A stretch of 64,000 bases of DNA from a virus: positions 1-64,000 of the IMG/VR virus record IMGVR_UViG_3300044620_000592. One strand, written 5' to 3'. Below the pieces are notes generated by a model. That model worked only from the letters and a program-made list of their open reading frames with translations, made no database searches and was not told the DNA's origin. The position numbers were made by a program, and so were the translations under genes. This document shows positions 10,486 through 45,900 of the stretch, piece after piece; the first letter of the stretch is position 1; each line of letters begins with the position of its first letter.

Positions 10486-10797
10486 TTAACGCTGTTCTTC
10501 CCTGAGTTTGTTTTCATCCCAACCCCAGCCAACAAGTCTTTGAATATATCTTTCATTCTTACATTGCTCACAGATATCTTCTTCATTATAAGAAGAGAGT
10601 ACCGTATTACAGTTGTCTGTAATACATACTCTCTTTCTTTTTTTATTGTCTTTTTTTCTGTAGTAGTTTTCTAATAGCTTTTTATTTGTAACAACTTTTC
10701 TACACTCTGGAGAGCAGTATATAGTGTTATAAACTTTTGCTATAAACTCTTTTTTGCATTCATCGTTTTGACAAATTCTTGCTTCACTATCAAACAT
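10486..10797 (-). CDS. Double zinc-finger protein (103 aa)
   Basis: Two metal-binding modules are visible. The first is C-x4-C followed by C-x3-C (CQNDEC, CSPEC), the second C-x4-C and C-x2-C (CITDNC, CEQC). A basic linker (RKKDNKKRKR) between them suggests nucleic-acid binding. The ATG at 10797 overlaps the upstream nuclease gene by 8 nt. The longer frame (from 10836) would add 13 residues entirely inside that gene. The function is unknown, probably regulatory. Confidence 0.7.
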   Translation of the reverse strand: MFDSEARICQNDECKKEFIAKVYNTIYCSPECRKVVTNKKLLENYYRKKDNKKRKRVCITDNCNTVLSSYNEEDICEQCKNERYIQRLVGWGWDENKLREEQR

Positions 10798-11509
10798 TCC
10801 CTGACCAGCATTTATCAGCCAACGCACAGTCTGCACATTTTGCAGAACTACGCTTGTATGGCTGAGTAGGGATTTCTCGGTTTAGGAACGCCTCGTAAAT
10901 ACCCTTGTACTTCTTAAATAGTTTATCAATAAAAACATCATCTCTCTCTACAAAAATAGGAAGAATCTCTTGATTATTCTTATTTTCATAAATAACAAGC
11001 CCAGATGGTAAGTCAAGACATCTCATATAGATTTGTGCTTGTCTGAAATGGTCATCTTTGGGCTTATTATGGAGCTTCCTATAATGGAAACCTTCATTGG
11101 AGATTGACTTCAACTCAATCAGTTTATGACCATCAAGGTCAATAATACCGTCAGCAGTTCCTTCAATTGGTGGATCATCATGAGTCACCGGAATTTCTTC
11201 AGCAACAAGAATACCCATCTCTCTCATATAACTATACAATCTTTCATGGACAGCATGACCATTATCAAAGATACGATATGTCTGAGGGCGGAAGATTGTT
11301 GTCATCTCTGTTCCCTCAAATAAGTAATACCAATATCTAGCACATTGGTTTGTATAACTAGGATGGAACCCGCCAACCTTCTTTGTCGCAGGAGCGTTAC
11401 GCTTCTCTAAGAAGTCATCTATAGCCTGTGCAAAGTCAATAACAATATCATCGCCAGTCTTTTGAATAGTAGGCTCTTTAGGTTGTCTAAGGGCATTTAA
11501 AGATTTCAA
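10790..11509 (-). CDS. Cas4/RecB-like PD-(D/E)XK exonuclease (239 aa)
   Basis: The nuclease core is present: GTADGII then LIELKS (the D and E-x-K of PD-D/ExK) and QAQIYM (the Q-x3-Y motif). One cysteine near the N-terminus (NQCARYWYY) and three near the C-terminus (C-A-D-C-x4-DKC) match the four ligands of the 4Fe-4S cluster in Cas4 and AddB. It probably resects DNA ends for recombination together with the RecA-like protein. There are no CRISPR arrays or other cas genes in the window. Confidence 0.87.
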   Translation of the reverse strand: MKSLNALRQPKEPTIQKTGDDIVIDFAQAIDDFLEKRNAPATKKVGGFHPSYTNQCARYWYYLFEGTEMTTIFRPQTYRIFDNGHAVHERLYSYMREMGILVAEEIPVTHDDPPIEGTADGIIDLDGHKLIELKSISNEGFHYRKLHNKPKDDHFRQAQIYMRCLDLPSGLVIYENKNNQEILPIFVERDDVFIDKLFKKYKGIYEAFLNREIPTQPYKRSSAKCADCALADKCWSGNV

Positions 11510-11824
11510 TTAATTCCCCTTTGATGCAAGTTTAAGAACATTGATATTCTCTGACAATGCCTCATACATTGTCTTCCAAATATCATTCACTAACTTATCC
11601 TGTTCACTCATTAGACTTGACCTTCTCTTAAAGGCCTGTGATTTAATAATCATTTGCGTTCTATAGGCTGCTAATAGATTAGCATACTTAATAGCTTGTC
11701 CACCGATATAATGATTAGGGTTGTCAATTATATCTTGCACAATCCTCATGCAATCAATAAACTCTTTTGACCTATCGCCCATGTTATCGGCAATAAAGTT
11801 AATATCTACAATAATGTCAGTCAT
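11510..11824 (-). CDS. Unknown helical protein in the recombination module (104 aa)
   Basis: Mostly alpha-helical with a conserved-looking YIGGQAIKYANLLAAYRTQM core and mixed charges. There are no cysteines in a pattern and no membrane span. Its ATG overlaps the end of the DpdA-like gene by 8 nt and its stop abuts the Cas4-like gene, so it is co-translated with DNA-processing enzymes. A recombination accessory role is guessed from context only. Confidence 0.7.
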   Translation of the reverse strand: MTDIIVDINFIADNMGDRSKEFIDCMRIVQDIIDNPNHYIGGQAIKYANLLAAYRTQMIIKSQAFKRRSSLMSEQDKLVNDIWKTMYEALSENINVLKLASKGN

Positions 11825-12599
11825 TTTTCTTCTTTCTTGATGTTTTTACCGACTCAGCCCATTTCATAGCCCAAGCATGGCAGTTACCACATGAGATAGC
11901 TTTCTCATGAGTAGTACCACAAAGGTAAATATTTTTCCAACCAGCAGCCCTCCCTGTGAAAGACCACGCCATTGAATCTGATGAGACAAGTTTATCACCA
12001 AATAGTGTCAACCCGTCTTTCTTTAATCCAAAACCATGCATTCTTATTCCATAGTTATGCAGTTCATTAACTAATTCGTTAACTCCCTGAACATTTGCCC
12101 TACGGCAGAACGAACCCATCCCAACGGTATCGTACTTGCGTAAATCAACTCCATAATCAGAATACATATCTAAGTGCTTTAAGTAATCAGATGGATCCCA
12201 TCCTTGCAATACAGGAATAATTGGCAAATCAGGGCCAAGTTCTTGCAATCTTAAAAAGTTCTCACATGATAATTTCTGATGTTCATCAACACTCTTGCCA
12301 GTTTTAACAATCATATGAGGCTCGCACATCCAATCCTGCGGTGAAGCCCAGTCCATCATTCCTACCTCTTCACGAAGTCGGTATAATTCTTCAATGTATT
12401 GCTCAGGAGTAGTAACCCATTTATCATAAAGAGATAGTTCAGTAAAACCTCCACTATCGCAAGCCCATCTTGCTAAGGATTTTTTATACTTTTTATATTT
12501 GCGAAAACGGCGAATTGATATGAATAGAGGCGTTGTATTCTCTCTGCCCCATAACCATGATGGGTTGTGACTCCCAACATAAAACTGAAAGTCTTCCAT
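11817..12599 (-). CDS. dpdA: DpdA/TGT-like 7-deazaguanine transglycosylase (260 aa)
   Basis: The TIM-barrel pattern of tRNA-guanine transglycosylases is visible. It has ACDSGGFTELSL (residues 46-57), IPVLQGW (128-134), GMGSFCRR (160-167), HGFGLK (188-193) and SSDSMAWS (206-213), whose Asp is a candidate nucleophile. The C-terminal zinc site is C227, C237, C240 plus a nearby His. In phages this family (DpdA) swaps guanine in DNA for a 7-deazaguanine such as preQ0, protecting against restriction. No queuosine-pathway genes are in the window. The ATG at 12599 overlaps the methyltransferase stop (TAATG). Confidence 0.8.
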   Translation of the reverse strand: MEDFQFYVGSHNPSWLWGRENTTPLFISIRRFRKYKKYKKSLARWACDSGGFTELSLYDKWVTTPEQYIEELYRLREEVGMMDWASPQDWMCEPHMIVKTGKSVDEHQKLSCENFLRLQELGPDLPIIPVLQGWDPSDYLKHLDMYSDYGVDLRKYDTVGMGSFCRRANVQGVNELVNELHNYGIRMHGFGLKKDGLTLFGDKLVSSDSMAWSFTGRAAGWKNIYLCGTTHEKAISCGNCHAWAMKWAESVKTSRKKKND

Positions 12600-13978
12600 T
12601 AAGCGCTTTCTATTAGTTTCTTTAGCTCTATACCAATCCACTCGGCTACTGGTGATGCAATTGCATTTCCACACATCTTGTAACGATTAGTATCGGCAAT
12701 CTTCTTACCGGTATAATCAATTGCTGTATGGTCATCAGGAAATCCCATCAATCTTTCACATTCAACAGGTGTCAATCTTCTTAAAATTAATTCAGGTGTC
12801 ATAACTCCATGCTGAGAGATTGTATCCAATGTATAAGATGGATCTCCCTCATCTCCAAAGCCTTTACCTTGTGGACCGGAAGTATCTGCACGACCAATAA
12901 TTGTCCCTTGAATTGGGATTGCAATATGATCTCCTGAGTCAATACCTGTGCGGATTGTGCGATAAATATCTTCGCTAACTTTATTATTATAACCATCATA
13001 GGCTAGAACAGGAACTTGTCCACCACCAGTACCCATGCGATGCTTTAATGTTGGAACCATATCGTCATCATAAACACGAACATCATTAACTCTTGTGCCA
13101 TCAACAACAAGAACCGTTGCTCTTGCCTCTCCGGTATTATCAAAAGCATTCAATGTTGGAGCTACTGCATTATCAATCCATGATTCATCATCAGTAGGGT
13201 TTTGTGCTCTTCTAGACTTTACAAATGGCTCAAGTACAAAGTTTCTCTCAGGGCGCTTGTAGTCACTAGCAGCAAGAGTTACTCCTCCTTCTGTCCACTT
13301 TGCGTGTCCAGATTGTCCGTACCAGATAGTTTCTGTAGTGCTACTCTCAGCAGTTCTGGCAGACTGTTTCCTTTTCTTTCTGCCCTTCTTAATATCCCCC
13401 CTGCTGTCTTCGGGGACAGGTAATATTTTTCCGCTACTTCGCTCAAGGGCTGAAGAGTCCCAGCAAGCGATGACAAAGATTCTTCTTCTGCGTTGTGCGA
13501 CTCCGAACCATTGTGCATCCAAGATGTGCCATTCAATTCCCAATGCCCCGATGTCAGCCATTTGGTTGAGGACTTCTGCGAAGTCTTCTCCTTTATTACT
13601 TGTGAGGGCGCCGGGTACATTCTCCCAGATTGCCCATTTAGGAAATTCTCCATTAGTTGCTTCTCTCATTTCTTTAATTATTCTTATACCTTCAAAGTAT
13701 AAGCCTGAACGGTCTCCATCAAGACCTGAACGCTTACCTGCTACAGATAAGTCCTGACATGGTGAGCCAAATGATATTAAATCAACTGGCGGTAACTCTG
13801 CACCATTTACATCTCTTACATCTTCAAATTTTGGAACATTAGGCCAATGCCTTTTAAGAACGCTTTGGCAATTCTTATCCCATTCAACTTGAAATGAACA
13901 TTCCCAACCTGCGGAATCAAATCCCAAGTCAAAACCACCTACTCCTGCGAATAGACTTCCGTAAGTTAATTGTTTCAT
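12599..13978 (-). CDS. DNA cytosine-5 methyltransferase (459 aa)
   Basis: Motif I is FAGVGGFDLGF (10-20), motif IV GSPCQDLS with catalytic Cys74, motif VI ENV (119-121), motif VIII QRRRR (162-166) and motif X GNAIASPVAEW near 440. The target-recognition region is long (about 190-400), suggesting a distinct specificity. It methylates C5 of cytosine, probably for protection against restriction. No matching restriction endonuclease is nearby. AAAGGAAAG precedes the ATG. It forms a modification block with the Dam-like and DpdA-like genes. Confidence 0.93.
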   Translation of the reverse strand: MKQLTYGSLFAGVGGFDLGFDSAGWECSFQVEWDKNCQSVLKRHWPNVPKFEDVRDVNGAELPPVDLISFGSPCQDLSVAGKRSGLDGDRSGLYFEGIRIIKEMREATNGEFPKWAIWENVPGALTSNKGEDFAEVLNQMADIGALGIEWHILDAQWFGVAQRRRRIFVIACWDSSALERSSGKILPVPEDSRGDIKKGRKKRKQSARTAESSTTETIWYGQSGHAKWTEGGVTLAASDYKRPERNFVLEPFVKSRRAQNPTDDESWIDNAVAPTLNAFDNTGEARATVLVVDGTRVNDVRVYDDDMVPTLKHRMGTGGGQVPVLAYDGYNNKVSEDIYRTIRTGIDSGDHIAIPIQGTIIGRADTSGPQGKGFGDEGDPSYTLDTISQHGVMTPELILRRLTPVECERLMGFPDDHTAIDYTGKKIADTNRYKMCGNAIASPVAEWIGIELKKLIESA

Positions 13979-13980
13979 TG

Positions 13981-14376
13981 CTACTTTCCTTTGAAGATAA
14001 TAAGAGCGGATGGGAACGGCGCAGAGTTCTTCTGGTCGTCAAATTTAAGCCTACCCTTGATAAAACGAATTTCATCAGCGTTCATGACAAAGTTATGCCA
14101 CCACCGAGTATCTGTACGGCTAGGAATCAAGAATACAGAGGTCTTTCCTTTGCTCTGTTCGTCAACGGCTTTTTCTAACCACTTGGCAATAATGTTGCCA
14201 TAAGGAGGGTTAACAAAATTACAGTTACCCCATTCAATTTCCAAACCGTCAAACTGAGGGTTAGGAGGGCAAGGATCAAAGTCAAAGTTAAATTCCTCAT
14301 TGAGTTTTTCATAAAATGCCTTTGGTGTTTTCCAGTTATCTCTAGCAGCAGTAAAATGGACTTTGTGCTTATTCAT
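13981..14376 (-). CDS. Phage N6-adenine methyltransferase, Dam family (131 aa)
   Basis: Matches the short phage DNA N-6-adenine-methyltransferase family: W-x-T-P near residues 15-18, DFDPCPPN (32-39) and the catalytic NPPYG (57-61), followed by a strand with FLIPSRTDTRWWH. The full domain is present at usual length. It transfers a methyl group from S-adenosylmethionine to adenine in DNA. It ends 2 nt before the C5 methyltransferase start. Confidence 0.88.
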   Translation of the reverse strand: MNKHKVHFTAARDNWKTPKAFYEKLNEEFNFDFDPCPPNPQFDGLEIEWGNCNFVNPPYGNIIAKWLEKAVDEQSKGKTSVFLIPSRTDTRWWHNFVMNADEIRFIKGRLKFDDQKNSAPFPSALIIFKGK

Positions 14377-14668
14377 ATTCTGAATCCTTAATTAGTTCTT
14401 TGAACACTTCCCACTCGATGATAGCAACCTTCACATCGGAATCCTCCCCAAGAACGACAGAAATGCAAGGATATTTATGATTTGCTTTCCATGCGTCTTT
14501 ACGCATCTTAAGCCATCCTAGACGAGTAAGGGTGAATGAAGACCCATTGTGCTTGTAATCTAAAAGAAAATTATGAAACTCAGCATCGCCTTTCTTCAAA
14601 CCCCTTCCGGAATTCTTGACAGCCTTTGCTTTGTCTTTCTTAATCTCTTCTTTTTCAGTTCTTTTCAA
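14369..14668 (-). CDS. Hjc-like / PD-(D/E)XK-type resolvase-like protein (99 aa), TTG start
   Basis: The pattern NSGRGLKKGDAEFHNFLLDYKH, then SFTLTRLGWLKM and ISVVLG, resembles small phage proteins annotated as Holliday junction resolvases with a D-Y-K catalytic core. Residues LLDYK (about 35-39) would be the D-x-K. The start is TTG at 14668, with GGGAG at ideal spacing. It overlaps the Dam-like gene by 8 nt. The family assignment is from pattern memory and is moderate. Confidence 0.6.
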   Translation of the reverse strand: MKRTEKEEIKKDKAKAVKNSGRGLKKGDAEFHNFLLDYKHNGSSFTLTRLGWLKMRKDAWKANHKYPCISVVLGEDSDVKVAIIEWEVFKELIKDSEYE

Positions 14669-14671
14669 CTG

Positions 14672-14794
14672 CTACTCCCAGAAGTATTCGTTGTCCTCTG
14701 CTCTGGCAATTGTATCAAGAATGACATATAGAGCAACTACGCCAATTCCTGTCAGGGTAGCAAACCCAGCTAATATCTTAATTAAAAGTTTCAT
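14672..14794 (-). CDS. 40-residue single-span membrane protein
   Basis: A frame found in the gap after the recombinase: its ATG overlaps the recombinase TGA (ATGA) and it ends 3 nt before the TTG of the next gene. Residues 3-26 are hydrophobic (Leu, Ile, Gly, Val), giving one membrane span, followed by an acidic C-terminal tail (RAEDNEYFWE). The function is unknown. The overlap with recA-like coding DNA supports it. Confidence 0.65.
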   Translation of the reverse strand: MKLLIKILAGFATLTGIGVVALYVILDTIARAEDNEYFWE

Positions 14795-15705
14795 CCCAAT
14801 ATTTTAGCATTAATATCTTCGATTTGCTCATCTGTAAGTTCGATCTTAGCCATACCGTTCCACTTCTCTTCTTGATAGAAGAACCAAGCGCCTCTGCGCT
14901 CAATGATGCCCATCTCAATAGCGATATCAAGCATTTCACGATACTTATCAATAGATGCTTCCTGAGGAAGAACATAGTATTCACCCTTAGTTCCGATACT
15001 GGCCATCTGCTTTGTTTTTTCAATTGTCCAAGCAACCTTCTGAGAAGTAATCATGCTTCTGTCGTCTCTCTCCATCTCTTTGGATGATTGAGATAAGAAC
15101 AACTTAACAATGTTATGCATATTATGGAATACAGAGTTGCCAATCTTAGCCTTTGTAACTGCATACATACCGCTCAAATCCATAGTCTGGTGAGCAATAA
15201 AAATCATAATGTTTCTCTCTTTATGGAGATAGTTCACCAATTGCTGAAGAAGAGCACCTTGTGAGCGAGCAAGCAAGCCAATCGCTTTACTTCCTTCAGG
15301 CTTGTCGTATGCTTCTTGTCTAATAATATTAGAAAGAGAGTCAAAGAGAAAGATATGCTTCTCTTCTGGGTGGTTGAGATACGGATGAAGATGCTTTAAG
15401 ATATCTTCAACAACTGTTGATTGGATTACAACAATGTCATCAACATTGATACCGCATTTAGCAGCATACTCTTCATTGAATGAATACTCTGAATCAACAA
15501 TGACCGGTCTAAACCCCTTAGCCTGAGCTTCTGCGAGGATTCTAAAACAGATAGTTGACTTACCAACAGATGGGTTTCCCCAAAACAAGTGAGTAGCACC
15601 TGTGTTCAATCCTCCACCTAATGCACGATTTAATCCTACACTTGGAGTTTCAATAACCTCATGAACAGGCATGAGGTCGCCTTTGCGCTTATCTACAATT
15701 AACAT
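14791..15705 (-). CDS. RecA/UvsX-like recombinase (304 aa)
   Basis: Walker A is GNPSVGKST (43-51) and Walker B HIFLFDSL with Asp122. A further strand with FIAHQTMD fits motif 3 of RecA-fold ATPases. It would form filaments on single-stranded DNA and drive strand exchange during recombination-dependent replication. It is shorter than bacterial RecA and lacks an obvious C-terminal domain, as usual in phages. AGAAAGAAG lies before the ATG, with TATTAT-like sequence further up, so it may have its own promoter after the hairpin at 15746-15767. Confidence 0.85.
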   Translation of the reverse strand: MLIVDKRKGDLMPVHEVIETPSVGLNRALGGGLNTGATHLFWGNPSVGKSTICFRILAEAQAKGFRPVIVDSEYSFNEEYAAKCGINVDDIVVIQSTVVEDILKHLHPYLNHPEEKHIFLFDSLSNIIRQEAYDKPEGSKAIGLLARSQGALLQQLVNYLHKERNIMIFIAHQTMDLSGMYAVTKAKIGNSVFHNMHNIVKLFLSQSSKEMERDDRSMITSQKVAWTIEKTKQMASIGTKGEYYVLPQEASIDKYREMLDIAIEMGIIERRGAWFFYQEEKWNGMAKIELTDEQIEDINAKILG

Positions 15706-15745: not shown

Positions 15746-15767
15746 ATGGGAACTACAGAGTTCCCAT
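15746..15767 (-). terminator. Hairpin at the end of the glycosyltransferase operon
   Basis: A perfect 9-bp stem (ATGGGAACT and complement) with a 4-nt loop overlaps the stop codon of the last glycosyltransferase gene. It is followed by T-rich but interrupted sequence on the minus strand, so termination may be partial. Confidence 0.55.
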
Positions 15768-16787
15768 CCAGTTATAAACTTTTTCCGCATCGTATGCGAA
15801 ATCAACATTATTTTTAAATGCTTCATATGCCTTAATTGACATGTTATTTAATAGCTCTTCATCAGATAGAACTTTTTTAACTTTATGAGCAGCATCTTCA
15901 ATTGAAATGCCATCAAGATTGATACTACTTTCATCATTAAATAATTCTTGAGCCAGCTGATTATCATATAAAGATCTTCTAATAATTGTTGGTCTACCGC
16001 ATGCATAAGCATTATAGATTATATGACCATAACCATCTCCATGATCTTTAACATGAAAAACTAAATCATCATTACTCATTGAGTCTGCTAAATCATGAAC
16101 TCCTGTCATATTTCCATCACGACATTGACCACCATAACTTCTGAATGTAAAATCAGTTAAATATGATTCTAATTTTATAAAATCATTCCATCCAAAATGC
16201 ATCTCTTGCAGTAAATTAATATAGCTGCTTACTGTTTTAGAACTTGTATGCTTTTTTGGTTTAAAAATATTAGTATCAAATTCTTGATGATAATAAACAA
16301 CATTAGCATCTTGAAGACTATCCGGCTTTACAGAGCCCAAAACATTCAGACCTCTAAAGATATTAGGATTCCAATTATTGCCAATTTGGACAATTAATTT
16401 AGCCTTTGGCTGGAACTCTTGTATTAATCTCTGGAATAGGCCAATGTGCTGTGGTATTGAAGCAATTATATAATCAAACTGCATATTCTTAAATGCCTCT
16501 AATGTTATTGCATTATGTGTTGTGATATTTCCAGGGTCATATACGCTATATACACCATCTGAATACTCTTTAACAATGTTAAGAGGAGGAGTGTTATCTG
16601 CTAATACTTGAGTTTCAACATCCAGAAATTGTTTAGCAGTATCTAATTGGTCATTGATAGCCCAATACCCCTCATAGAACCATTCAAGCCCTATTGGTCT
16701 ATAGACATTCATTCCCAGCCTCTCCTCAAATAGCATTACAAATGAACGCAAAAGAGAGTTATGATGAAAATCAGTTAAGATATTCAT
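15753..16787 (-). CDS. GT-B glycosyltransferase-like protein (344 aa)
   Basis: The C-terminal domain carries the nucleotide-sugar pattern of GT-B enzymes: DGYGHIIYNAYACGRPTII, followed by helices ending in AYEAFKNNVDFAYDAEKVYNWM. The N-terminal half (YIIASIPQHIGLFQ, LIVQIGNNW) is Rossmann-like. It is the last gene of a four-gene island with an FkbM-type methyltransferase. Its ATG overlaps the upstream TGA. The acceptor could be modified DNA, a virion protein or a host glycan. Confidence 0.75.
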   Translation of the reverse strand: MNILTDFHHNSLLRSFVMLFEERLGMNVYRPIGLEWFYEGYWAINDQLDTAKQFLDVETQVLADNTPPLNIVKEYSDGVYSVYDPGNITTHNAITLEAFKNMQFDYIIASIPQHIGLFQRLIQEFQPKAKLIVQIGNNWNPNIFRGLNVLGSVKPDSLQDANVVYYHQEFDTNIFKPKKHTSSKTVSSYINLLQEMHFGWNDFIKLESYLTDFTFRSYGGQCRDGNMTGVHDLADSMSNDDLVFHVKDHGDGYGHIIYNAYACGRPTIIRRSLYDNQLAQELFNDESSINLDGISIEDAAHKVKKVLSDEELLNNMSIKAYEAFKNNVDFAYDAEKVYNWMGTL

Positions 16788-17533
16788 TGTTTTTCAAAAT
16801 ATGCTAAACCAATTGTTTCATAATTTTGCACATCTGCAAAAAGATTGCTTGTTACATCTTTAAACTGACTGCCAATAAGTGTATTAAATTCTTTGTACAT
16901 TTCTTTGGTTGTTGGCAAAGCATGAAGTTCTGCAACAATCCTGTCAATCTTCTCCAATGTCTCAGGTGATGCTCCCTTAAAAGCACTCCACTCAGCACCT
17001 TCGCAATCAATCTTAAGAATATTTACATTCTCAATAGCCTCAAGAGCATCATTTAAACTAATTGTGCTTACCTTAATTTCGCGGCCTTCTGTCCAAAGAT
17101 CCTTTTGCCATTCTGAAGAGTCAATAGTATTCCCAATAAAGCGATGATGAGAACCTGAATCTGTATTTTCATTGCCATATCTTAATACAACTTCTTTACC
17201 AGATACTTCATTAATAGCCTTGTGATGGAGAGTAAAATTATTTTCCCATCCATTAGCTTTAACATTCTTCATGATAAGTTCAGCGTTCTCCGGTAATGGC
17301 TCAACTGCAATTACTTTAAATCCACGACTAAGCATTGCGAGTGAGCAACCTCCAGCATGTGCGCCAATGTCTACTGCTGTAGAATTTCCCGCGTCAACCT
17401 GTAAGTCGCCAATCTTATATTCATCCTCGGCAATGCAGGAGTACAAAGTATTCCAGTCATTAGTACCTTCTCTTGTAAAGATGGTTACTTCTACACCCCA
17501 AGGTGTTTTAATTTTGTCTTCTTTATATTGCAT
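16784..17533 (-). CDS. FkbM-family methyltransferase (249 aa)
   Basis: The SAM-binding fold is clear: TAVDIGAHAGGCSLAML (motif I), VIAVEPLPENAELI (motif II), then NILKIDCEGAEWSAFKG. The DCEGAE segment is characteristic of FkbM-type methyltransferases, which usually O-methylate sugars. Neighbouring glycosyltransferases on both sides suggest it caps or decorates the glycan they build. It overlaps both neighbours. Confidence 0.88.
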   Translation of the reverse strand: MQYKEDKIKTPWGVEVTIFTREGTNDWNTLYSCIAEDEYKIGDLQVDAGNSTAVDIGAHAGGCSLAMLSRGFKVIAVEPLPENAELIMKNVKANGWENNFTLHHKAINEVSGKEVVLRYGNENTDSGSHHRFIGNTIDSSEWQKDLWTEGREIKVSTISLNDALEAIENVNILKIDCEGAEWSAFKGASPETLEKIDRIVAELHALPTTKEMYKEFNTLIGSQFKDVTSNLFADVQNYETIGLAYFEKQ

Positions 17534-18521
17534 TTAAAAATTCCTCCCATTGTTTAATTATTTTCTTTTTACCAAATACATCAATAGCGTAAGCTCTTTG
17601 CTTTTCACTAATTTCTTTTGCATATGCATCGTTGTCAAGCAACTCTTGTGTTTGTGAAATCATTTCTTCAACGCTTCCACAAACAATTCCACCAAGACTC
17701 CTAAGAATCTCCTCAACCTCATAGAAGTCAAAGTTATAAATTATATTAGCCATTTGATTATTAATAGCAACAATTGGCAATCCCATCATTAAAGCTTCAA
17801 TAAATGAAAGAGTGTATGAAGCAGGAGCAGTTCCACCATATGGCATAACCCTTGCCTCTTGCATTCTCTTTATTTGTGCTTCATACGGAATTGCACCACC
17901 ATTGTAATGACCTAAATCATCATTACCAGGGCCATACACAGTTCCATCAAATTTCTCTATTACAGCCATTACTTCATCGTAATGACAATGGCTTCTTCGC
18001 CCCTTCAAGGACTGGGCAAAGTTAACAACATTACGACCATCCCCAGTCCATCCGAATAATTCATCTTCGTCTTTATAGAAACGAATAAGAACATCTTCTC
18101 CGATGTAATTAGATAACCTTCTTTCATTTGGAGAATATCTAATAATCTTTAATCCCTCATCACGCATTGGCTTTAAAGTTGCCTCAACGCCTTCGGTTGA
18201 CTGACCGATTGTTCTCCAGATAACTTTCTTATGCTTAATCCTATCCCAGTTATGAACAATAACATCAGGAGAATGCATAACTATAAGAACATCAAATGGT
18301 TCAATCAATTCATTAGGCAAGTTAGTTTTAGGAAAATTAGTCGCAAAAGGAACATATTCTTCATAATACTTAGCACCCTTAATTCCGGGTCTTGGGTGTG
18401 TTATATGCCCCGCAGGATCGATATACGCACCATTAGAGAATACTTCATGCCCTAAGTCTGTCAGTAGCTGTACTTCATCATATTCCAGAATAGAATGGCA
18501 GCTTAAATAATGTATTTTCAT
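17523..18521 (-). CDS. GT4-like glycosyltransferase (332 aa)
   Basis: GT-B fold: N-terminal Rossmann domain with FDVLIVMHSPDVI and KKVIWRTIGQS; C-terminal domain with YTLSFIEALMMGLPIVAINNQ, where the E-A-x-x-x-G-x-P-I-V pattern holds the nucleotide-binding Glu. The C-terminus is helical and basic. It overlaps the upstream glycosyltransferase by one base and the FkbM gene by 11. It is probably the middle step of one glycan pathway. Confidence 0.85.
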   Translation of the reverse strand: MKIHYLSCHSILEYDEVQLLTDLGHEVFSNGAYIDPAGHITHPRPGIKGAKYYEEYVPFATNFPKTNLPNELIEPFDVLIVMHSPDVIVHNWDRIKHKKVIWRTIGQSTEGVEATLKPMRDEGLKIIRYSPNERRLSNYIGEDVLIRFYKDEDELFGWTGDGRNVVNFAQSLKGRRSHCHYDEVMAVIEKFDGTVYGPGNDDLGHYNGGAIPYEAQIKRMQEARVMPYGGTAPASYTLSFIEALMMGLPIVAINNQMANIIYNFDFYEVEEILRSLGGIVCGSVEEMISQTQELLDNDAYAKEISEKQRAYAIDVFGKKKIIKQWEEFLNAI

Positions 18522-19600
18522 CAGCCCTTAACCTCTTGTAAAATCTCTTCTGCTCTTTTAATGTATGGCTGGGATACTTTCTCCCAAGTCATATTCTCAT
18601 TAATATAAATAGCGCTCTCATATGTTCTCCGAGCAACTTCTTCGTAGTGCTCAGCAACATATAGCATCTTATCACATAAATCATCAAAGATTGGCTCCGC
18701 CCATTCACCACAGTTCTCATATCTTCCAAACATTCTCCATGTCCCCCATCTAAAATCAAGAGGGACAGACATATGAGCAAACTCTGTACAGGCTAATACA
18801 TTTGTGCAAATTGTTGGAATACCTTTTGCAATTGCTTGGAATGGAAGGTTACCCCATCCTTCTCCGCTAGTCGGATACAAGACGCAATCAGCCATGTCAA
18901 ATATTCTGCCGAGTTCTTCATGAGATACCTCTTCGTCAATAACTTCAATCTGAGGATGCCTAAGGCCATTGACTTCTCCATTGCGATAGATTCTGCCATC
19001 AGGATCTCCATTAGATTTATAAATTAAACGGTAGTTATCATTGCCCTCAAACATTCTTAAAAATGCATCAACAGACATCTGAGAATTCTTACGACTAGAA
19101 GGTGAGCCAATGGATAAGAATGTGAATGTTGAATGAGGAGTTCTTAGCTTTGGATAATAGATTGTTGGGTCAACACCTAACTTAAATTCATGGATAGGAA
19201 CGCGCACTCCGGAATTTTTAAATACCTTACGCATCTCTTCACTGCATGTCCAAACCTCATCCATATCATTGCATAGCCTTACCCAATGGTCAGGGAGTTT
19301 ATTTGTTTCCCAGAATGTAAAACCAACGGAATAAATCCGTGACTTAACAAAGGCTTCCGGTACGGAATGATTGATTACAATCTCTTCAGAACAGCTATCC
19401 TTTTCCATGTATCCAAAGCCAATTCCTTCCATTGCAGCAATTTCGGGTGGCACTTGAATCTTACCAATCTCTCCCCAATGCGTGGGCTTACTTCTACGGA
19501 TCGGCAATCCGCTTGTGCCAATAAAATCCCATAGACGGTCAGGCGTATAACCATAGCCCTCACTAAATTTTGGTATCTGATTATCAGACCATACCAGCAT
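18521..19600 (-). CDS. GT4-family glycosyltransferase (359 aa)
   Basis: The C-terminal half has the hallmark E-x7-E region (PTSGEGWGNLPFQAIAKGIPTICT) and FTFLSIGSPSSRKN, the start of the GT-B C-domain with sugar-nucleotide contacts. The N-terminal domain has SVGFTFWETNKLP and EVWTCSEEMRKVF. The ATG at 19600 sits inside the polymerase 3' end (17-nt overlap) with AAAGGATT before it, so the glycan island is coupled to the replication operon. Confidence 0.88.
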   Translation of the reverse strand: MLVWSDNQIPKFSEGYGYTPDRLWDFIGTSGLPIRRSKPTHWGEIGKIQVPPEIAAMEGIGFGYMEKDSCSEEIVINHSVPEAFVKSRIYSVGFTFWETNKLPDHWVRLCNDMDEVWTCSEEMRKVFKNSGVRVPIHEFKLGVDPTIYYPKLRTPHSTFTFLSIGSPSSRKNSQMSVDAFLRMFEGNDNYRLIYKSNGDPDGRIYRNGEVNGLRHPQIEVIDEEVSHEELGRIFDMADCVLYPTSGEGWGNLPFQAIAKGIPTICTNVLACTEFAHMSVPLDFRWGTWRMFGRYENCGEWAEPIFDDLCDKMLYVAEHYEEVARRTYESAIYINENMTWEKVSQPYIKRAEEILQEVKG

Positions 19601-36568: not shown

Positions 36569-36987
36569 TATTGTTCACCCAATTCAACAGATACATCGTA
36601 ATAAGAGCATGCAGATTTTATATCTCTTCTTACTAACTTTTCAGTATAAGAATTAACAAAGCAAGTGTATGTCTTGAAGTCGTCTGCGGGAGAGAGCTTT
36701 ATTGAAACCGTTACTGTTCCTCTTGTATTTGCGAGGGCTGACAGATAGTCTCGACCTCTTCTCCCATCAACCGTGTGGTCAGTATTATTTGGAAGATATG
36801 TAAAATCTAAACTAAATGTTCTTTTATTCTTTCTAATGTATCTTCTAATTTTTCCTCTTGAAAGTTCAACATCAGATCCGGCCTGCTCAACGGATGAGTT
36901 AAACTTGCGATTATGTTCTGTAATCTCTTGTCCATTAATTGACAATAGATGGATTAGACCTGTCTGCTGGTTTGGAATTGGTGCCAT
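36568..36987 (-). CDS. Distal tail-like protein, paralogue of the next gene (139 aa)
   Basis: Almost the whole protein aligns by eye with the C-terminal part of the 330-residue gene: EHNRKFNSS, KRTFSLDFTYLPNN, HTVDGRRGRDYLS, and YTEKLVRRDI. It sits directly after the tape measure, the usual place of Dit-type proteins that connect the tube to the baseplate. A tandem duplication within the tail operon is the simplest origin. Confidence 0.75.
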   Translation of the reverse strand: MAPIPNQQTGLIHLLSINGQEITEHNRKFNSSVEQAGSDVELSRGKIRRYIRKNKRTFSLDFTYLPNNTDHTVDGRRGRDYLSALANTRGTVTVSIKLSPADDFKTYTCFVNSYTEKLVRRDIKSACSYYDVSVELGEQ

Positions 36988-39900
36988 TATAGACCTCGAT
37001 TAATTCCGCTATAGGTTGAGATTGTTGTATTATTCAACCCCGCTGCTTTTTGATTTTGCGGAGCAATAGTAACATTATAGTCTTTCATCATTGACTCAAA
37101 CCACTGCTTTTCGCCAATAAAGTTCTCAACATAGATATGGGTTGTTGATGTGGAAGTAGATTGACCATTTACTGGACCAGAGTAAGATGGGGCTTTAGGA
37201 GTATTGAATCTCATGTTGTTCATTGCTTGCAAAGCAGCAATGCCAATGTTCTTAACTGCTGATGCATTGACTACATATTCACCGCCATGAAGAAGAGCAG
37301 GAACACCTTGCGAGCCAAATCCTGGAATTATTCCTCCATTAGCTCTGCTGATCAATCCGCCATTAAAATTACCAATTCCAAAATCATCTTCTTTATTTTT
37401 CATAGCCTTACGAAGAGCAATTCTGGCTAATGCAATCCTTTTCGTAGCAGCAGTAATTCTAGCTTCAATTTCAGGTGTTGAAATACCACCTCTTCCAACA
37501 GAAAATCCAAGTAAATTATTCCTTAATTCATTGGCACTTGTAGTGAAAGGTCTAGAGAACCCAGTAAAGCCTATTCCATTAAATGAATCACCACGCTCCA
37601 ACCTTTGAACAGCATCTGAGTAATCACCAATAATTTCAATACTTGGGTCTATTGATTTCATTGTTTCTGAAAGTTCAGATGCAACCTTAAAAGAATATTT
37701 GCTCATACTTCCAGGATAAATAACCTTTGCACCTAATGGCTTCATTACCATTTCATATATTGCACCAAGAATTCTATTAGAAGCAATTGATGCTAAAGTC
37801 GTTTGTTTTCCACTCGTATCGGCATAAGAATTCCACATTCCAACCTTAAAACCTGTAACGGGATAATGATTTTTATCATACATTTGACCGATTTCAAACG
37901 ACATTGAACTTAATTGTGAAATACCATCATCTAGAATTTGACCAACAGTAATTCTTCCAGAAGTAGCAGTATCCATTACTAGTGATGTTCTCATTTTGCC
38001 TAATAACTCTGGATCAACTACACCAGCTTTCATTAATGATTCAAATGAATCCATATTATTAAAAATAGGAGATTTTGTAAAAAACTTTTTATTAGAATAA
38101 ATTATTGCAGATCTTTGATAATGGTCCGTAAGCGAATTGGTTCTTTGTACAATTTGATTTACTATATTACTTGCATAATTAGGATCAACAATATGCTCTT
38201 GACTTCTTACTGCTTCAAAGAAATTAGACATAGTAAAATCGTTTTCTCTGAAGTCTTTCATCATTAGATCAATATGAGTTTTTCTTTTTGGCATATTTGC
38301 TGGCATATTAAATCCCATGCCTGACATATAATCATAGTGTTGTTCAATATATTTTCTTACAAATTGATTAGGGTTTTTACTATTTAAAAATAAATTTATT
38401 AAATCATCAAACTGCATAGGTCTAACTTGGTTCAAGTTGTCAATAGTTATTGCTGGGTAACTAAAAGCATTTCTATCACCCATAATTTGATCAATTAAAG
38501 TTTTAATTCCAACTTTTGTGCCAGGTTTTATAGCCCTTTTACCATTTGAAAGTATCCTTCCAGAATAGTCTTCAAAATCAATCATTGCTCTTGTAAAACT
38601 TCCAGTACGACCTTTTTTACTTTCTAAAATATTTGAAAGAACATTTTCTTTTATTAATCTATTTTGTTCAACTCTTAAGAAAGATGGGCTTACTAGATAG
38701 TCATTATACATAGAGAGCCAATCTTCACTAGTATTTCCAAAATTAGAGAAAGTTTTTGAAGGGATTAAATAGTCAGATATTTTAGAAATAATCTTTTTCT
38801 GTGGTTTTGGTGTTTTTGGTAGCCCTAATTTATTTCCATACCTTGTACCAAAAATTTTTGAAACTAAGTTTGGATAACTTCTAGTAGTTTGAGCTGGATT
38901 AAACTCCTTTATTGATTTAACCATTGGAGATCTTTCATCAAAATAGTGGAACCATGCTTCGGGACCAACTTTTATAGGCCTGCCAGCAATGTCGACAGTA
39001 GGAGTTGGCGGTTTAATAACCTCTTTTAAATGCCTTGCTTCAGAATAAATTCTGTTCAAAGGTTTGTTATTGTTAATAAATGTCCAATAACTATTTGATA
39101 AAGAATCTTGGACTCTTGGCAAGAAGGTGCTTGGGTTTCTTGGAGCGTTAAGCCCAAAGACAGTATCAGGTCCAATCAATGAAACAGCAGATTGAAGACC
39201 GGCTAAGGTTCTATCCTTACCACTAAGACCTTCATTATGAATATCAAATGTTCTTTCTAGAGGGAAATAAGCGCCAGTGATTGGGTTAAATTCAGTTAGG
39301 GTTTTTGCCAATCCAGCGCCTGCTCTTACCGATGGCAAATCCAACATGGTTGGTTTTCCACTTGGATGAACATGTTCATATTTTGGATTAGTAGCTCTAT
39401 TAAGCATAACTGCAGAACCTGTAAAGCCGGAACCAGTTTGTGAACCATATATCTCAGCCATCAATCGATTACTAGCCCAGTTTTTAGCAGCAACAAAAGG
39501 CTTCTTAACAGCCGACTTTATCTTTCCCCAGATACTCTTTTTCTGCTCTTGCGCTTGTTCTTTTGCCATTTCACCAATGCGTTGCATCTCAAAAGCGGAT
39601 AAAAAATCAGCCTTTCTAAAGTCAGCAGCAGATGCAGGTTTCTTTTCATCAGGCTTCTTGCCCTTTACAAGACCACCCTTGTAGTAGCCAAAAGCGCCTA
39701 CAGCGTCAGCATCAGGAGAATAGGCACCAAAGCTATCAAAATTTCTTGCATTTTTTGGCCCTTTTACTATTTTTTTAAAACTATCAATCCAAATAGGCTT
39801 ACTAAAAGGCATTGTAATCTTGTCGAATCCTTTAGGTTTGTTTCTAAAATAATTAACATAAGCATCTTTAGATGCTTTAGTATTAAATGCCCCCTTGTCG

Positions 39901-42900
39901 GAGCCAAAATTTTTAAATGGATCATATCCAAGTTGACTTATATAACTCATATTTGGGTTAAAGTTTTCTGGGAGAGGGAATTCCTGCTCAGGAGAACGGT
40001 ATTTCTTTAATTTTTCAGGTTTGCCTTTGAAAAGCCCTCTTTCAAGACTTAATAAATGACTTCTATCAAAACCGTGCTTACCTGTACCAAGTGGAGGATT
40101 TAGAAGCGTGGCCCCAGCAGGAAAACCAGGGGAATTTACTGGAACATTTCTTATCCAGCCAAATATTGCAATTCTATTTTTAACAACCATTTGTTGAAGT
40201 TTTGTTGCTAAGTCTGCTGTTTTTCCAAATTCAAGACCTCCATATGCAACCCATGTATCGTCAGCAGTACGCAAACCACCGCCCATCCATCCATCGCTTG
40301 TTTTTGCGCGACCAAACCAATCTGGTTTCTTACCCCAATTTTTTCCTCGGCTAGATTCGCCTTTGCCAATCGTATCCATATAGGCTTCAGTAAAACCACC
40401 ATTGTTTTGTTGCCAATTCCACTCTGCTTGTGCTGGATCTTCTTTTATCTTTTTATCGGGTGCTCTCTCAGGTGCTTTAGATTTACCACCCGTGACCATC
40501 TTCTTCGGTTTCTTAATAGCACCACCCTTTGCAAAAGAATCAATCATTCCACCATTTGCAAAAGGCTTTGGCTTATATGTTCCTTGGTTGATTTGTTGCA
40601 TCATTCCCCAGCCGTACTTGTTAACGGCTGAGTTTCTTACAACAAATTCACCACCATGAAGAATTGCTGGTATACCTTGCTGTACTGGGCCTTCTGTTGG
40701 GCCGCCCTTTGAGTATGGCAACATACCGCCCATTTCATAAAGTTTATATCCGTCATACCCTTCACTTCTGGAACCGGTGTTATAAGCATTCCTAACCATC
40801 GTAAGAATTCTTGAATTCTTCGTTTGCTTTATTGCAGGGTTTTCTGTAAGGAATTTTTTAAACTTATTAGCGGATGAATCGACTGGGGGTTTTGTGAAAA
40901 TTGTAAATGCGTCTGTAAGATAATCAACTAATAGATTTCTATCAGCATTGCGATAATTAGCAAACATAACGCGAGCCAGTTGATTTGGAGTAACTTTACC
41001 TTTTTTAAGATTATTAAGACCTGTTTCATTACCGGTTCCTCCCCCAGTGCCAGTTCCACCAGCGCCAGCTCCAGATCCACCAGCGCCAGTTCCACCACCA
41101 CCGCTACCACCGCTACTGCTAGACCCACCCGCACCAGCAGGGTTTACAATGTCTTGATAGGCTGTATATGTCGTTAGAAGTTTGGAGAAAGCTTCACTAT
41201 TTGTATCAATAACTGTTGTTAAAGTTTGTGAAAGGCCTGTGTACTTTCTTGTTAAGGCATCAATACTTGCGTCAATTGTCTTGCTCCAAATCCCAGTAGG
41301 ACCAAAAGGATTATTTTCAGTAAGTGTTTTGCCAATTGCTGCAAGAGAAGATGTCAAAGGACCAGAAGCATTAACTCCAAGTTGACCTAATGCGCCACCA
41401 AAGGATTCTGAAAAAACTGTTCCCATACTGTTAGCAATAGATTTTGCTCCAACAAAACCATTACCACCATCAATTAACTGATTGAGCATTGTGTTGAATT
41501 CTTCAGCAGTGGTTGGAGGGAATTGTGTAATCTTCTTTGCAGCCTCTGTAAAGGACTTAATCATTTCATCAAAGTACTTGGAAGCATTTTCTTTTGCTTC
41601 CTTGATTGAATCAATCATCACCTTACGGTTTTCTTCAGCAAGCTCCTTTACGCGCTCATCTCTAATTACACCAATACTCTTAGTATCTTCTGTGTCTTGC
41701 CTTGCCCCCGCATCGGCAATTGCTCTTGCTTCATCAATTTGCCCAGCATAAACTGCCATCGCATAATTACGTCTAGTATTAAGACGGTTAAGGGCTCTTT
41801 GCTCTTCGGCTTCTCTAAGTTTGTTTTGGTATTCTTGCTCTTTTGTAAGTTTTTCTTCAGCTTTTGCAACATCCTCAATTTTTTTAATTTGAGCATCATA
41901 AATTAAAAGAGATGCTTCTTTTTGATCTTTCAACGAGTTTGTTATAGATTCAACAACAGCAGTCATTGCATCCTTAATACGGCTTGCAATTTCTTCTTGG
42001 ACTTCTTTCTTGATGTCTTTTAGCGCTTGAGCTGCTCTCTTTGCTAATTCCTTAGCGCCTTCATCAGCGCCTTCAGATAAACCTTCACCAGTTGCATTGG
42101 CAATTTGCTCTTGCATTGGGTCTGTATCAACCTCAACATTATCGTCTTTCTTGCCCTTGCCGCCTAGTGTGACTTTTCCTTTTGAAGCATCAATACCGCC
42201 CTTCTTTAAACCACCAAGTTTGTTTTTGATACCCTTAGCAGATTTATCAATAAGGCCATTAACAGCACCTGTTGCTTTATCAACTGTGCTATTGACAACG
42301 CTAGTTGCTGAATCGACCATTCCTTTTGCGCCATTTACTACGCTTCTAAATTTATTATTAATACCTTTAAATTTGTCACCAATTCCAAAAGGTAGCATTG
42401 ATGCGAGTTTTAATACTCCAGTTATTGGCCAAACTAGATATTCAATCATCCCTTTAGCAAGAAGGCCAATAAGGCTAACAACTCCCTTTACAAGACCACC
42501 AGCAAGGCTGACTATAACTTTAAATCCAATTGCAAAAGCATTAACAAAAAATTCAGCAGCAAAAGCTACAGCAGCCATTAAGAAAGAGAATGCTTTCTTC
42601 CAATTACCTTGGAATAGCGATACAACTGCTCCAACAATGTTTATAATCATATAAAGGTATGGCTTAATGAACTTCTCAACAATCATTTTGAAAACATTAG
42701 CTACAAACTTAAAGACTACTGCAATACCAGAGAATGCTTTACCAAGACCTTGGACAGCACCTTCTGAGCCTTTTGCTCCGTTTCCAAAATGAGCAAACAA
42801 GTCAATAATAGGGCGGACAAGTTCAAGAACTGCATCTTTAACAGTAGTAAATGCCTCTTTAACAGTTTTAATTCCAGAAGATCCCGCTTTCTTAAAACTG

Positions 42901-45900
42901 TCTAGATTCTTCATTACAAGCATTACAGCAACGCCGATTGCAAGAATTATAATTCCAATACCAGAAGCGATAAGTGTTAACTTCATTATCTTCAGAGCAG
43001 CTGTCCCAAGATTTGTTGATGTTACAAAACCTTTCATCGCAGCAGACATTCTTGCAAAGAATCTTGGCGCTTCAACGCCAGCAGCAGCATGCTGCATTCT
43101 TAATGCAAGCATTGCATCTTTAGCGCCTTTTACACTCTTCTTGTATCCTTCTATTGGAGCAGTTGCAAGACCCTTGGCTGTACCGCCAAGTTCTTTTATT
43201 CTGTCGGGAGCAGCTTCTCTTGATCTTCCTACTGCTTCTGCGACTTGAGCAGCTCTTCCTTTAATTCCACCTCTGTAGATATCCGATGCTCTGTCAGCAG
43301 TAATTTCTCTGCCCTTATACATATTTTGCCCAGTGAATACATCAAGATCTAAATTTTTTCTACTAAGCGTTCTCTTGGCTAATGTTCTCTTTTCAAGAGT
43401 CTCTCTAGTATCCTCATAAGCCTGCAGAGCATCTTTCTCTCCAGTGGTCATTCTTCTAAAACGACCACTCGCTCCTCTGATACCGGCCGCTCCTGAAGTA
43501 ACACCAGATGCCTGCAGAGCGACTGCCTCCTGCACCATGTCGCCTACGGACTTTGAGAATCGACCACCAGGACCTCTACCACCTGTAGTTGGATAACCTT
43601 TAGCCAACAAACTTTGTTTGATCATCTCTTCAGTTTTTCTTAGGATTTCTCTTTCATCTGCATCCATTGGCCCCATACGACCACTGGGGCCTCTTACTCC
43701 CGCAGCGCCAGACATAACCCCAGTTTTCTGAAGCTTCAAAGCAGATTTCATTTGGGATGTAAAAGAAGGTTTTGCAGCAACAGGTGCGCCAGTAATTGGG
43801 TCAATAACTGAAGTACCAGTAATTGGAGCTAATGATTCTCTAACTGCTTTTTGAGCATTAACTTGTCTAGACAATGCCATTGGAGCAGTGCTTTGCTCTT
43901 GCAAAGCACCAGTCATTAATCCAATTTTATTTGCGAGTCTTCCAACCGGACCTTCACCAGATGCAAGAGTTGCAAGGAATGTCGCAAACTTCCCATTTGT
44001 ATTAACAACGGTATCACCAACAACAGTTAATGGCTTAGATAGTCTAAGCATTGCTGATGAACTAGCAACAGCTTCAACTGACAATGTTTTAAGGGATGGC
44101 AAAAAGGAGAGAAGGACTTTCGCAACGCTACCCATTGCAAGTCTAAACTGACCGAAGACAAAGATGAGTGGTCCAATTGCAGCAGTTGCTCCAGCAACAA
44201 GAAGAGCAACAGTTGATATTAATTGCTTAGTTCTACCATCAAGACTAGACCATGCAGTAATCAACTTATTTGAAATATCTGTAATTTTTTCTATTGCAGG
44301 TCTTGCCCCTTTGATGATATCAGTAGCAAAAGCTTTAAAGTTGTTTTTAAGAATTGATATTTGTGTGTCAAGAGAACCTAATGCGACATCTAATTCTCTT
44401 TGTGCAACCTCAGCAGCGTTGGCTGCGCCTGCAAGTTGAATAAAGCTAGCTCGACCAGCCTCCGTATTAACTTGACCAATTAAGTCTACTCCTTCTGTTC
44501 TTTGAGCTTTTACAATCTCATCAGTAACAGCTTGTCTAACTTTTCTAGCTTCTTTAACTTGCGCTAGAGTTACTCTACCAAAACCATCAATTTGCGCCGT
44601 TTCTCCCTCTTTAATCTGAGCTGTTGCAATTCTGGCAATAATTCCAATATCTTGATAACTCTTAATAAGAGGAAGGTTTGCATTAGATGACTTATTAGCC
44701 GAAATTATTGCTTGGTTTGCAAATCCTTGGAGTTTCTTTTCTGCAGACTCTAAACTTACAGTATTTGATTTAAGAACTTCATCAAAGTCTGCCATCTGAG
44801 CAAGTGCAACTTCCATTCTTGGACCTTGACGAACACCAAAAACTTTTGCAAAGAACTCCATTGCGCCTTCTTGACCTGCTGCGCTGTTCTTTAGTTCATT
44901 AAAACCATCAATAAGAGATTGAATAGCATCAAGACCAGTACCTTTAATTGCGGTAAAGTTAGTATCATACTCTTTTGATAATCTTCTAAACAAGTCAGCA
45001 TTTTGCTTTGTTGGAGCAACAAGTCTCTGCAAAGAAACTTTAATTGAGTTAGCGGATGCTCCAACTTCAAAACCAGCAGCCTTCATTGGAGCAAGCATTC
45101 CAGCAAGTTCAGTCATTGAAAGACCAAATGAGGAACCAGCAGCAGCGACTTCTGGGAAAGCATCTCCCAAGTCTCTTAGAGTCAATGCAGTTACGTTTTC
45201 AACAGAGTTGAAAAGATTTAATTGAGCAGTTGCTGCGCCGATTGCAGCAATTTCTCTTTCTTCAAAGGTCATCTTTCTAGATTGACCCGACATTTGCATA
45301 GCTCGCTGAGCTTGGAAGTAAAGGCTTTGTACAAGATCTTTGGCTGCACCAATATCCATGTCACCAAGTTTTTCAGTAACAGCAGCTAATTCAGTAATCT
45401 TTGCAATGCTCTCTTCGCTTTGGATACCTAATTCAGCAAAGTCTCCTGCCAATCCGACTGTTAAACTCTTGGCAAGACCGAATCTATTGCTAATTTTTCC
45501 AAGAGATTTATCAAGCCTGTCATAGCGATCAACCATTCCTTGAAGTTGCTTAGATTGCTCCTTAGTTGCCCCAACAAGGTCAACATTCATCTTCTTCGCA
45601 GCGGCCTCAAGATTTGGTGCAACATTTTCAAGAACTTTATTTAATCTTACAAATTCTTTATCAACTGACACAAGAGCTTGGAGACCGTATCTTGCAAAAC
45701 CAACCATTGGGGTTGTAAGACCAATAATAAGACTTCGACCAACGAACTGCGCATCCTTGCCAAGACGCTTCTGCTCTTGCGCTACGCTCTTTAAGTCCTC
45801 TGTAAGACCTCTTAGACGAATTCCCTTTAAAGCAGACTCATAAGCCTTAAGGTCGGAAACAGCGGCTTTTCTGAATGAGGCAGATGCTCCAGTAGCAAAC

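What the first reader, a model, noticed from the sequence alone, without database searches (positions are those of the whole stretch)
11817..14376. Three DNA modification enzymes in a row: DpdA/TGT-like, C5 and N6-adenine methyltransferases
A TGT-like transglycosylase (DSGGF, LQGW, zinc site) overlaps a C5 methyltransferase with an unusually long target region, followed upstream by a Dam-type enzyme. Known DpdA proteins put 7-deazaguanines into phage DNA. Having all three suggests layered protection against restriction. There is no preQ0 synthesis gene here, so the precursor would come from the host or from genes outside the window.
Basis: partly seen in the sequence, partly recalled or inferred. 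Interest (0 to 1): 0.65.

Follow-up and report, generated by a model that had tools for sequence, protein, structure and literature searches.

The report
Phage DNA-modification trio with salvage-type DpdA
A virus of an actinobacterium carries three DNA-altering enzymes side by side, and one of them belongs to a neglected branch whose relatives travel without the genes that make its building block but often with a gene that may import it, which suggests the virus takes a rare guanine substitute from its host to disguise its DNA.

Summary
The three genes are real: DpdA (PF23859, E 9e-71; TGT fold, Z 16.9), a C5-cytosine methyltransferase (PF00145) and a phage Dam (PF05869), in one tight minus-strand operon. 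The claimed dpdA/MTase overlap is a start-codon artefact; the junction is a 1-nt TAATG. Both catalytic Asp are invariant. The 105.7-kb record holds no FolE, QueD, QueE, QueC or YhhQ gene. This DpdA is not the phage 9g/Rosebush type found in preQ0 operons but a 'singleton' clade: 0 of 40 related phage records carry QueC or QueD, and Orion, of a genus carrying this type, had no 7-deazaguanine. New here: in 44 of 129 dereplicated relatives on phages and actinobacterial elements a YhhQ-family (7-deazaguanine importer) gene sits beside dpdA, almost always directly upstream; N6 and C5 methyltransferases recur in the window's order; and actinobacteria carrying this DpdA have QueC more often than family-mates (11/21 vs 51/369, p=7e-5). 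Best reading: a salvage-type DpdA putting host-made or imported 7-deazaguanine into DNA, alongside 5mC and 6mA. Modification itself is untested. Reader partly supported.

The parts
11817..12599 (-). dpdA, PF23859 (salvage/singleton clade), 260 aa from ATG at 12599; the GTG-started ORF to 12674 is over-extended
   Evidence: PF23859 9.4e-71, phrog_1279 4.4e-75, TGT fold Z 16.9 over 246 residues, invariant D48/D89/H188/D208, start codon
12599..13978 (-). C5-cytosine DNA methyltransferase, 459 aa, 229-aa target region with four TL motifs, possibly multispecific
   Evidence: PF00145 5e-61, TIGR00675 over cut-off, PCQ/ENV/QRR motifs and TL spacing, M.HhaI alignment
13981..14376 (-). Phage N6-adenine methyltransferase (Dam, PF05869), 131 aa, NPPY motif
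   Evidence: PF05869 1.6e-19, phrog_111 1.5e-41
14369..14668 (-). Holliday-junction-resolvase-like protein, first gene upstream, overlaps dam by 8 nt
   Evidence: phrog_2002 7e-13
14791..15705 (-). RecA/UvsX-like recombinase of the same replication/recombination block
   Evidence: PF00154 3e-19, phrog_97 1.9e-41
11510..11824 (-). Unknown 104-aa protein, overlaps the dpdA end by 8 nt; conserved in close relatives
10790..11509 (-). Cas4/PDDEXK-like exonuclease of the same gene block
   Evidence: phrog_1706 2.6e-39

Best explanation
The locus is a phage DNA-modification cassette. DpdA replaces guanine in phage DNA with a 7-deazaguanine base (preQ0 or a derivative), using TGT chemistry: D208 attacks the glycosidic carbon, D48 acts as acid/base, and guanine is exchanged for the free base. 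The phage does not make the base; it takes it from the host cell, which either synthesises preQ0 or imports it. The C5 MTase, translationally coupled to dpdA, adds 5mC at one or several target sequences and the Dam adds 6mA, so that the DNA carries three kinds of mark against restriction. Shown: the genes, folds, catalytic residues, operon structure, absence of preQ0 genes in the held record, clade membership and clade-wide coupling to YhhQ-family importers and MTases. Inferred: that the substrate is DNA, which base is used, host supply in this phage, MTase specificities, and protection.
For: TGT fold, Z 16.9 over 246/260 residues. Catalytic Asp pair and the DpdA-type His (9g H196 = H188) invariant, alignment to experimentally validated 9g DpdA (PMC6884629). 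No FolE/QueD/QueE/QueC in this record nor QueC/QueD in 40 relatives' records, with 9g as positive control. YhhQ-family gene beside dpdA in 44/129 dereplicated loci, 42 of 45 hits directly upstream with the stop codon mostly within 21 nt of the estimated dpdA start; Pfam over cut-off for all ten checked; same pairing on Streptomyces, Embleya and Nocardia plasmids and phage phiLM21. E. coli YhhQ is needed for preQ0 transport (PMC5372724). Host QueC enrichment 11/21 vs 51/369. N6-MTase, C5-MTase, dpdA in the same order on Pseudonocardiales elements. Dam and C5 MTase next to dpdA in close relatives.
Against: Orion, of a genus (Pegunavirus) carrying this DpdA type, had no 7-deazaguanine in its DNA (PMC6884629), although its host makes no preQ0. 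The window phage has no YhhQ in the held record and its host is unknown beyond Actinomycetota, so precursor supply is unproven. The clade keeps TGT-like features (LQG, CxxC) that the validated DNA DpdAs lack, so a tRNA substrate is not excluded. Palindromes GATC, ACGT and CCATGG are still depleted in the genome, so protection, if any, is not complete. The QueC statistic is not corrected for relatedness within the family.
Confidence: 0.6

Rival explanations
1. The PF23859 protein is a minimal tRNA-guanine transglycosylase: it inserts a host or imported 7-deazaguanine (preQ0, preQ1 or queuine) into tRNA anticodons, for translation during infection, and its place beside DNA methyltransferases is coincidence of cargo.
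For: TGT fold; LQG and CxxC aligned with E. coli Tgt but absent from DNA-acting DpdAs; YhhQ plus TGT is a known queuosine-salvage pairing (PMC5372724).
Against: The nucleophile neighbourhood (S-x-D-S-x-x-W) and H188 match DNA DpdAs, not Tgt. Repeated neighbours are C5, N6/N4 and Dam DNA methyltransferases. No Q-maturation gene was noticed among the sampled neighbours, though these families were not searched for one by one.
Confidence: 0.17
2. DpdA is idle in this phage: an inherited gene whose base is missing in the present host, as in Orion on M. smegmatis, while the two methyltransferases do the protection.
For: Orion DNA unmodified (PMC6884629); no precursor gene or importer in the held record.
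Against: Catalytic residues are invariant across the clade and the frame is intact in near-identical and 83%-identical relatives, so selection persists.
Confidence: 0.13
3. DpdA exchanges guanine for a base outside the preQ0 family (another imported purine analogue) that the published LC-MS panel would not have seen.
For: Orion was tested only for five named compounds (PMC6884629); the YhhQ/COG1738 family is heterogeneous (PMC5372724) and these members score under NCBIfam's queuosine-transporter cut-off; a PAPS-reductase-like gene is a recurrent partner on Pseudonocardiales elements.
Against: Enrichment of QueC in genomes carrying this DpdA points to preQ0; a related importer sits beside queC on a Microvirga plasmid.
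Confidence: 0.1

Closest known systems
Phage DpdA with preQ0 operon (Enterobacteria phage 9g, Escherichia phage CAjan, Mycobacterium phage Rosebush; Hutinet et al. 2019, PMC6884629)
   Same: DSG-F, HGFG and DS motifs, conserved His (9g H196), phage gene, profile alignment over 149 columns
   Different: Those carry QueC/QueD/QueE/FolE with dpdA; 9g DpdA does not match PF23859; those compared have His where this clade has Gln of LQG, and lack the CxxC pair
Singleton DpdA of Mycobacterium phages (Pegunavirus incl. Orion, Weiservirinae); 'group 3' of Hutinet 2019
   Same: Same PF23859-type clade, 39-46% identity, no QueC/QueD in the ones searched
   Different: No adjacent DNA methyltransferase annotated in the ones read; host M. 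smegmatis lacks preQ0 genes (PMC6884629)
Bacterial dpd islands (dpdA-dpdK; PMC11888242)
   Same: TGT-like DpdA that modifies DNA with preQ0/ADG
   Different: Those islands are defined by dpdA plus dpdB with dpdC and restriction genes; no such partners were seen here
Multispecific C5 MTases of phages (SPbeta/phi3T type, own knowledge)
   Same: Long region between motifs VIII and IX with repeated TL motifs 41, 35 and 73 aa apart
   Different: Specificities unknown; the presumed modules align poorly to each other
Stanwilliamsviridae (Streptomyces phages such as NootNoot)
   Same: Major capsid 50.6% and terminase 41% identity
   Different: Window phage is 38% GC, shorter record, host unknown

Membership tests
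DpdA (7-deazaguanine DNA transglycosylase) | Match to the DpdA profile PF23859 above cut-off | tested here: met
   238.6 bits vs 27
DpdA (7-deazaguanine DNA transglycosylase) | TGT fold | tested here: met
   Model pLDDT 84.8; best re-ranked PDB matches all TGT, Z 16.9, 246 residues. Foldseek's own top list gave other TIM barrels.
DpdA (7-deazaguanine DNA transglycosylase) | Catalytic Asp pair and conserved His (9g H196) | tested here: met
   D48, D208, H188 invariant
DpdA (7-deazaguanine DNA transglycosylase) | 7-deazaguanine present in the DNA, dependent on the gene | not testable with these tools
   Needs mass spectrometry; Orion, of a genus with this type, was negative (PMC6884629)
preQ0-operon type phage DpdA | FolE, QueD, QueE, QueC encoded with dpdA | tested here: not met
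   None in the 105.7-kb record; record may be incomplete
yhhQ-dpdA salvage type | YhhQ-family importer next to dpdA | tested here: not met
   No PF02592 in the window's record, although 44/129 clade relatives have one
Classical tRNA TGT | CxCxxC..H zinc site | tested here: inconclusive
   260 aa; CxxC retained, other ligands uncertain, region pLDDT 59-66
C5-cytosine DNA methyltransferase | PF00145/TIGR00675 over cut-off, PCQ, ENV, QRR motifs | tested here: met
Phage Dam (PF05869) | Profile over gathering score, NPPY motif | tested here: met
   70.6 bits vs 28.1; below TIGR01712 equivalog cut-off
Multispecific C5 MTase | Several independent target-recognition modules | tested here: inconclusive
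   Four TL motifs in 229 aa; modules do not align well to each other

The most novel reading that the evidence does not exclude
PF23859 defines a distinct, mobile 7-deazaguanine-salvage modification system: yhhQ-dpdA as a coupled pair, expanded on Pseudonocardiales integrative elements to an N6-MTase, C5-MTase, PAPS-reductase-like, yhhQ, dpdA cassette, which installs an imported (possibly undescribed) 7-deazapurine in DNA. The window phage carries a transporter-less version with the MTases.
Probability: 0.35. Interest if true: 0.75.

Novelty: new variant of a known kind. Interest (0 to 1): 0.58.

Why it matters
Hutinet 2019 left the largest group of DpdA phages (76 'DpdA only' genomes) with unknown modification status and saw no link between YhhQ and any phage group. 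The coupling found here gives much of that group a concrete hypothesis, salvage instead of synthesis, and a cheap test: feed preQ0 and look at the DNA. It would also explain why Orion grown on M. smegmatis looked unmodified, and it predicts that DNA marks of phages and mobile elements can depend on what their hosts or neighbours make.

Tried and rejected
A 76-nt gene overlap: rejected, start-codon artefact. preQ0 genes elsewhere in the record: none. PDB sequence search with the DpdA profile: no hit; Foldseek's own ranking gave generic TIM barrels and only the VIA-align re-ranking put TGT on top. hhalign against E. coli Tgt alone aligned only the DSGGF stretch. The tree with E. coli Tgt and 7-11 DpdA has very long branches, so its root and the placing of the 9g group are not trusted; the clade split rests on PF23859, residues and gene content instead. 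Orion and Rosebush records are not held; genus mates Numberten and Arbiter were used. YhhQ in the cultured mycobacteriophages of this clade: the near neighbours checked are not PF02592. The host could not be named: WhiB and Stanwilliamsviridae-like capsid and terminase point to Actinomycetota only.

Full report
1. What is there. On the minus strand, in transcription order, lie a RecA/UvsX-like recombinase (15705-14791), a Holliday-junction-resolvase-like protein (14668-14369), Dam (14376-13981), a C5 methyltransferase (13978-12599), DpdA (12599-11817), a 104-aa unknown and a Cas4-like exonuclease. From the resolvase-like gene down to the exonuclease the junctions overlap by up to 8 nt or are only a few nt apart, so this stretch is probably one operon inside a replication/recombination block. 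The DpdA/MTase junction is TAATG. The first-stage overlap of about 75 nt came from an upstream GTG; the 83%-identical relative L005 starts at the conserved Met. Near-identical and related contigs keep Dam, dcm and dpdA together, so the arrangement is not an assembly accident.

2. The proteins. DpdA: PF23859 238.6 bits and phrog_1279. The AlphaFold model (pLDDT 84.8, pTM 0.84) aligns best to tRNA-guanine transglycosylases, Z 16.9 over 246 of 260 residues at 11% identity; this list is a re-ranking of Foldseek candidates, and Foldseek's own top rows were other TIM barrels. D48 and D208, aligned with the two catalytic Asp of Tgt, and H188, aligned with the 9g DpdA His196, are invariant in 15 relatives, and profile comparison pairs DSGGF, HGFG and SSDSMAW with 9g's DSGAF, HGFG and SCDSSSW. 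C5 MTase: PCQ at 73, ENV at 119, QRR at 162, RRLTPVEC at 400; 229 aa lie between motifs VIII and IX, with four TL dipeptides, against about 100 aa in M.HhaI. By the TL rule for multispecific phage enzymes (own knowledge) several targets are possible, but the modules do not align well to each other. Dam: PF05869, NPPY present.

3. The genome. The record is a 105,669-bp virus contig, 38% GC in the window. Its capsid and terminase are nearest to Stanwilliamsviridae of Streptomyces, mostly 128-134 kb, so part may be missing. A WhiB gene agrees with an actinobacterial host. QueC, PTPS/QueD, radical SAM, GTP cyclohydrolase I and YhhQ/Vut_1 are all absent (control genomes ring).

4. Two DpdA clades. 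The preQ0-operon DpdAs (9g; CAjan; Arbiter of Rosebushvirus; also Finch and Dp-1, and Hilltopfarm without an annotated queC) sit with queC, queD, queE, folE genes. 9g DpdA does not match PF23859. The members of that group that were compared have His where the window clade has Gln of LQG, and 9g, CAjan, Arbiter, Finch and Dp-1 lack its CxxC pair. The window clade includes Pegunavirus, Weiservirinae and Phrappuccino phages. In 40 records with this clade's DpdA (33-136 kb, five of them complete phages) neither QueC nor QueD occurs, while 9g scores in both searches. In published LC-MS data Orion, a Pegunavirus whose genus mate Numberten carries this type, had no 7-deazaguanine, whereas Rosebush had about 28% of G as dPreQ0 (PMC6884629). 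Orion's own sequence was not held, so its DpdA type is inferred from genus.

5. What travels with this clade. A scan of bacterial genomes found 109 relatives; the 80 kept are nearly all actinobacterial, beside tyrosine integrases, prim-pol, FtsK-like and conjugation genes (several identities are read from sequence only), that is, on integrative elements; only 9 of 395 sampled genomes of the class have one over the cut-off. Across 129 loci dereplicated at 90% DpdA identity (72 from genome contigs, 57 viral), 25 have a C5 MTase, 22 an N4/N6 MTase and 20 a PAPS-reductase-like gene, nearly always on the dpdA strand and mostly upstream. Unprompted Pfam scanning of 100 neighbours in viral contigs gave PF02592 (YhhQ) as the commonest family. 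A profile from these then found a YhhQ-like gene in 44 of 129 loci (25 genome contigs, 19 viral); 42 of 45 hits are directly upstream, with the stop codon mostly within 21 nt of the estimated dpdA start. All ten checked individually pass Pfam's cut-off, though they stay below NCBIfam's stricter queuosine-transporter cut-off. The same pair lies on Streptomyces, Embleya and Nocardia plasmids and in phage phiLM21. On Pseudonocardiales elements the order is N6/N4 MTase, C5 MTase, PAPS-reductase-like, yhhQ, dpdA; the window has the same order without the two before dpdA. Other DpdA-like proteins, too distant for this clade's profile, in Arthrobacter phage Aoka, Mycobacterium phage StevieRay and Pseudanabaena phage Pam5 also lie beside or one gene from a YhhQ-like gene.

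6. Hosts. QueC over cut-off occurs in 20 of 50 genomes with this DpdA against 12 of 395 of the class. Matched by family: of the 21 DpdA-bearing Pseudonocardiaceae among the 50 (family assigned from record titles), 11 have QueC, against 51 of the 369 other family members; Fisher p = 7e-5. Relatedness within the family is not corrected for, so the p-value is optimistic; the comparison group may hide further DpdA carriers, which would make the true contrast larger. In the two cases read (G024, G050) queC is on another contig than dpdA, so it looks like host background.

7. Mechanism. Most likely the clade uses a 7-deazaguanine base it does not make, taken from a preQ0-making host or imported by YhhQ (E. 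coli YhhQ is needed for preQ0 transport, PMC5372724). The window phage lacks the importer in the held record and would depend on its host. DNA as substrate is inferred from the DNA-DpdA-like residues and the DNA methyltransferase neighbours; tRNA is not excluded because LQG and CxxC are TGT-like. Depletion of GATC, ACGT and CCATGG suggests that restriction still shapes this genome; it does not test modification.

8. Verdict. Observation confirmed with corrected boundaries; interpretation partly supported and sharpened. The locus is a member of a little-studied clade; what is new is the clade-wide tie to import and to MTases. I found no report of it in the held library, and Hutinet 2019 stated no correlation of YhhQ with any phage group; subscription papers, and later work on phage 7-deazaguanines that is not held, could not be read.

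Noticed in passing
L028:14324-15559 (record 77823-79058), + strand: Cytochrome P450 gene (PF00067, 1.9e-26) in a phage; rare, not studied.
   Followed up: partly
L030:1421-1717, - strand: WhiB-family regulator (PF02467, 8e-22); WhiB-like genes also lie near dpdA in related viral loci L006, L010, L016, by sequence.
   Followed up: partly
window 15753-19600, - strand, and L028:7917-8930: Glycosyltransferase-like genes and an FkbM methyltransferase next to the cassette, another glycosyltransferase elsewhere; could decorate virion proteins or DNA.
   Followed up: no
window 36987-46190, - strand: Single 3067-aa ORF, unexamined.
   Followed up: no
whole record (window, L028-L030): Palindromes depleted: ACGT 0.25, GATC 0.53 of expected, CCATGG 0 of 14 expected; CpG 0.61 with TpG/CpA 1.17.
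   Followed up: partly
L116, L072, L066, L060, L056, L084, L096, L076: Pseudonocardiales elements with N6/N4 MTase, C5 MTase, PAPS-reductase-like (phrog_424), YhhQ, DpdA in a row; a possible modification cassette in its own right.
   Followed up: partly
L189, L190, L194 (phages StevieRay, Aoka, Pam5): YhhQ-like genes beside or near DpdA-like proteins of other clades, annotated as hypothetical, membrane or VUT family protein.
   Followed up: partly
L145:6809-7855: 349-aa protein 2 bp after dpdA whose C-terminal half is a phage Dam (phrog_111); a Mom-family protein (PF25680) is also among the neighbours.
   Followed up: no
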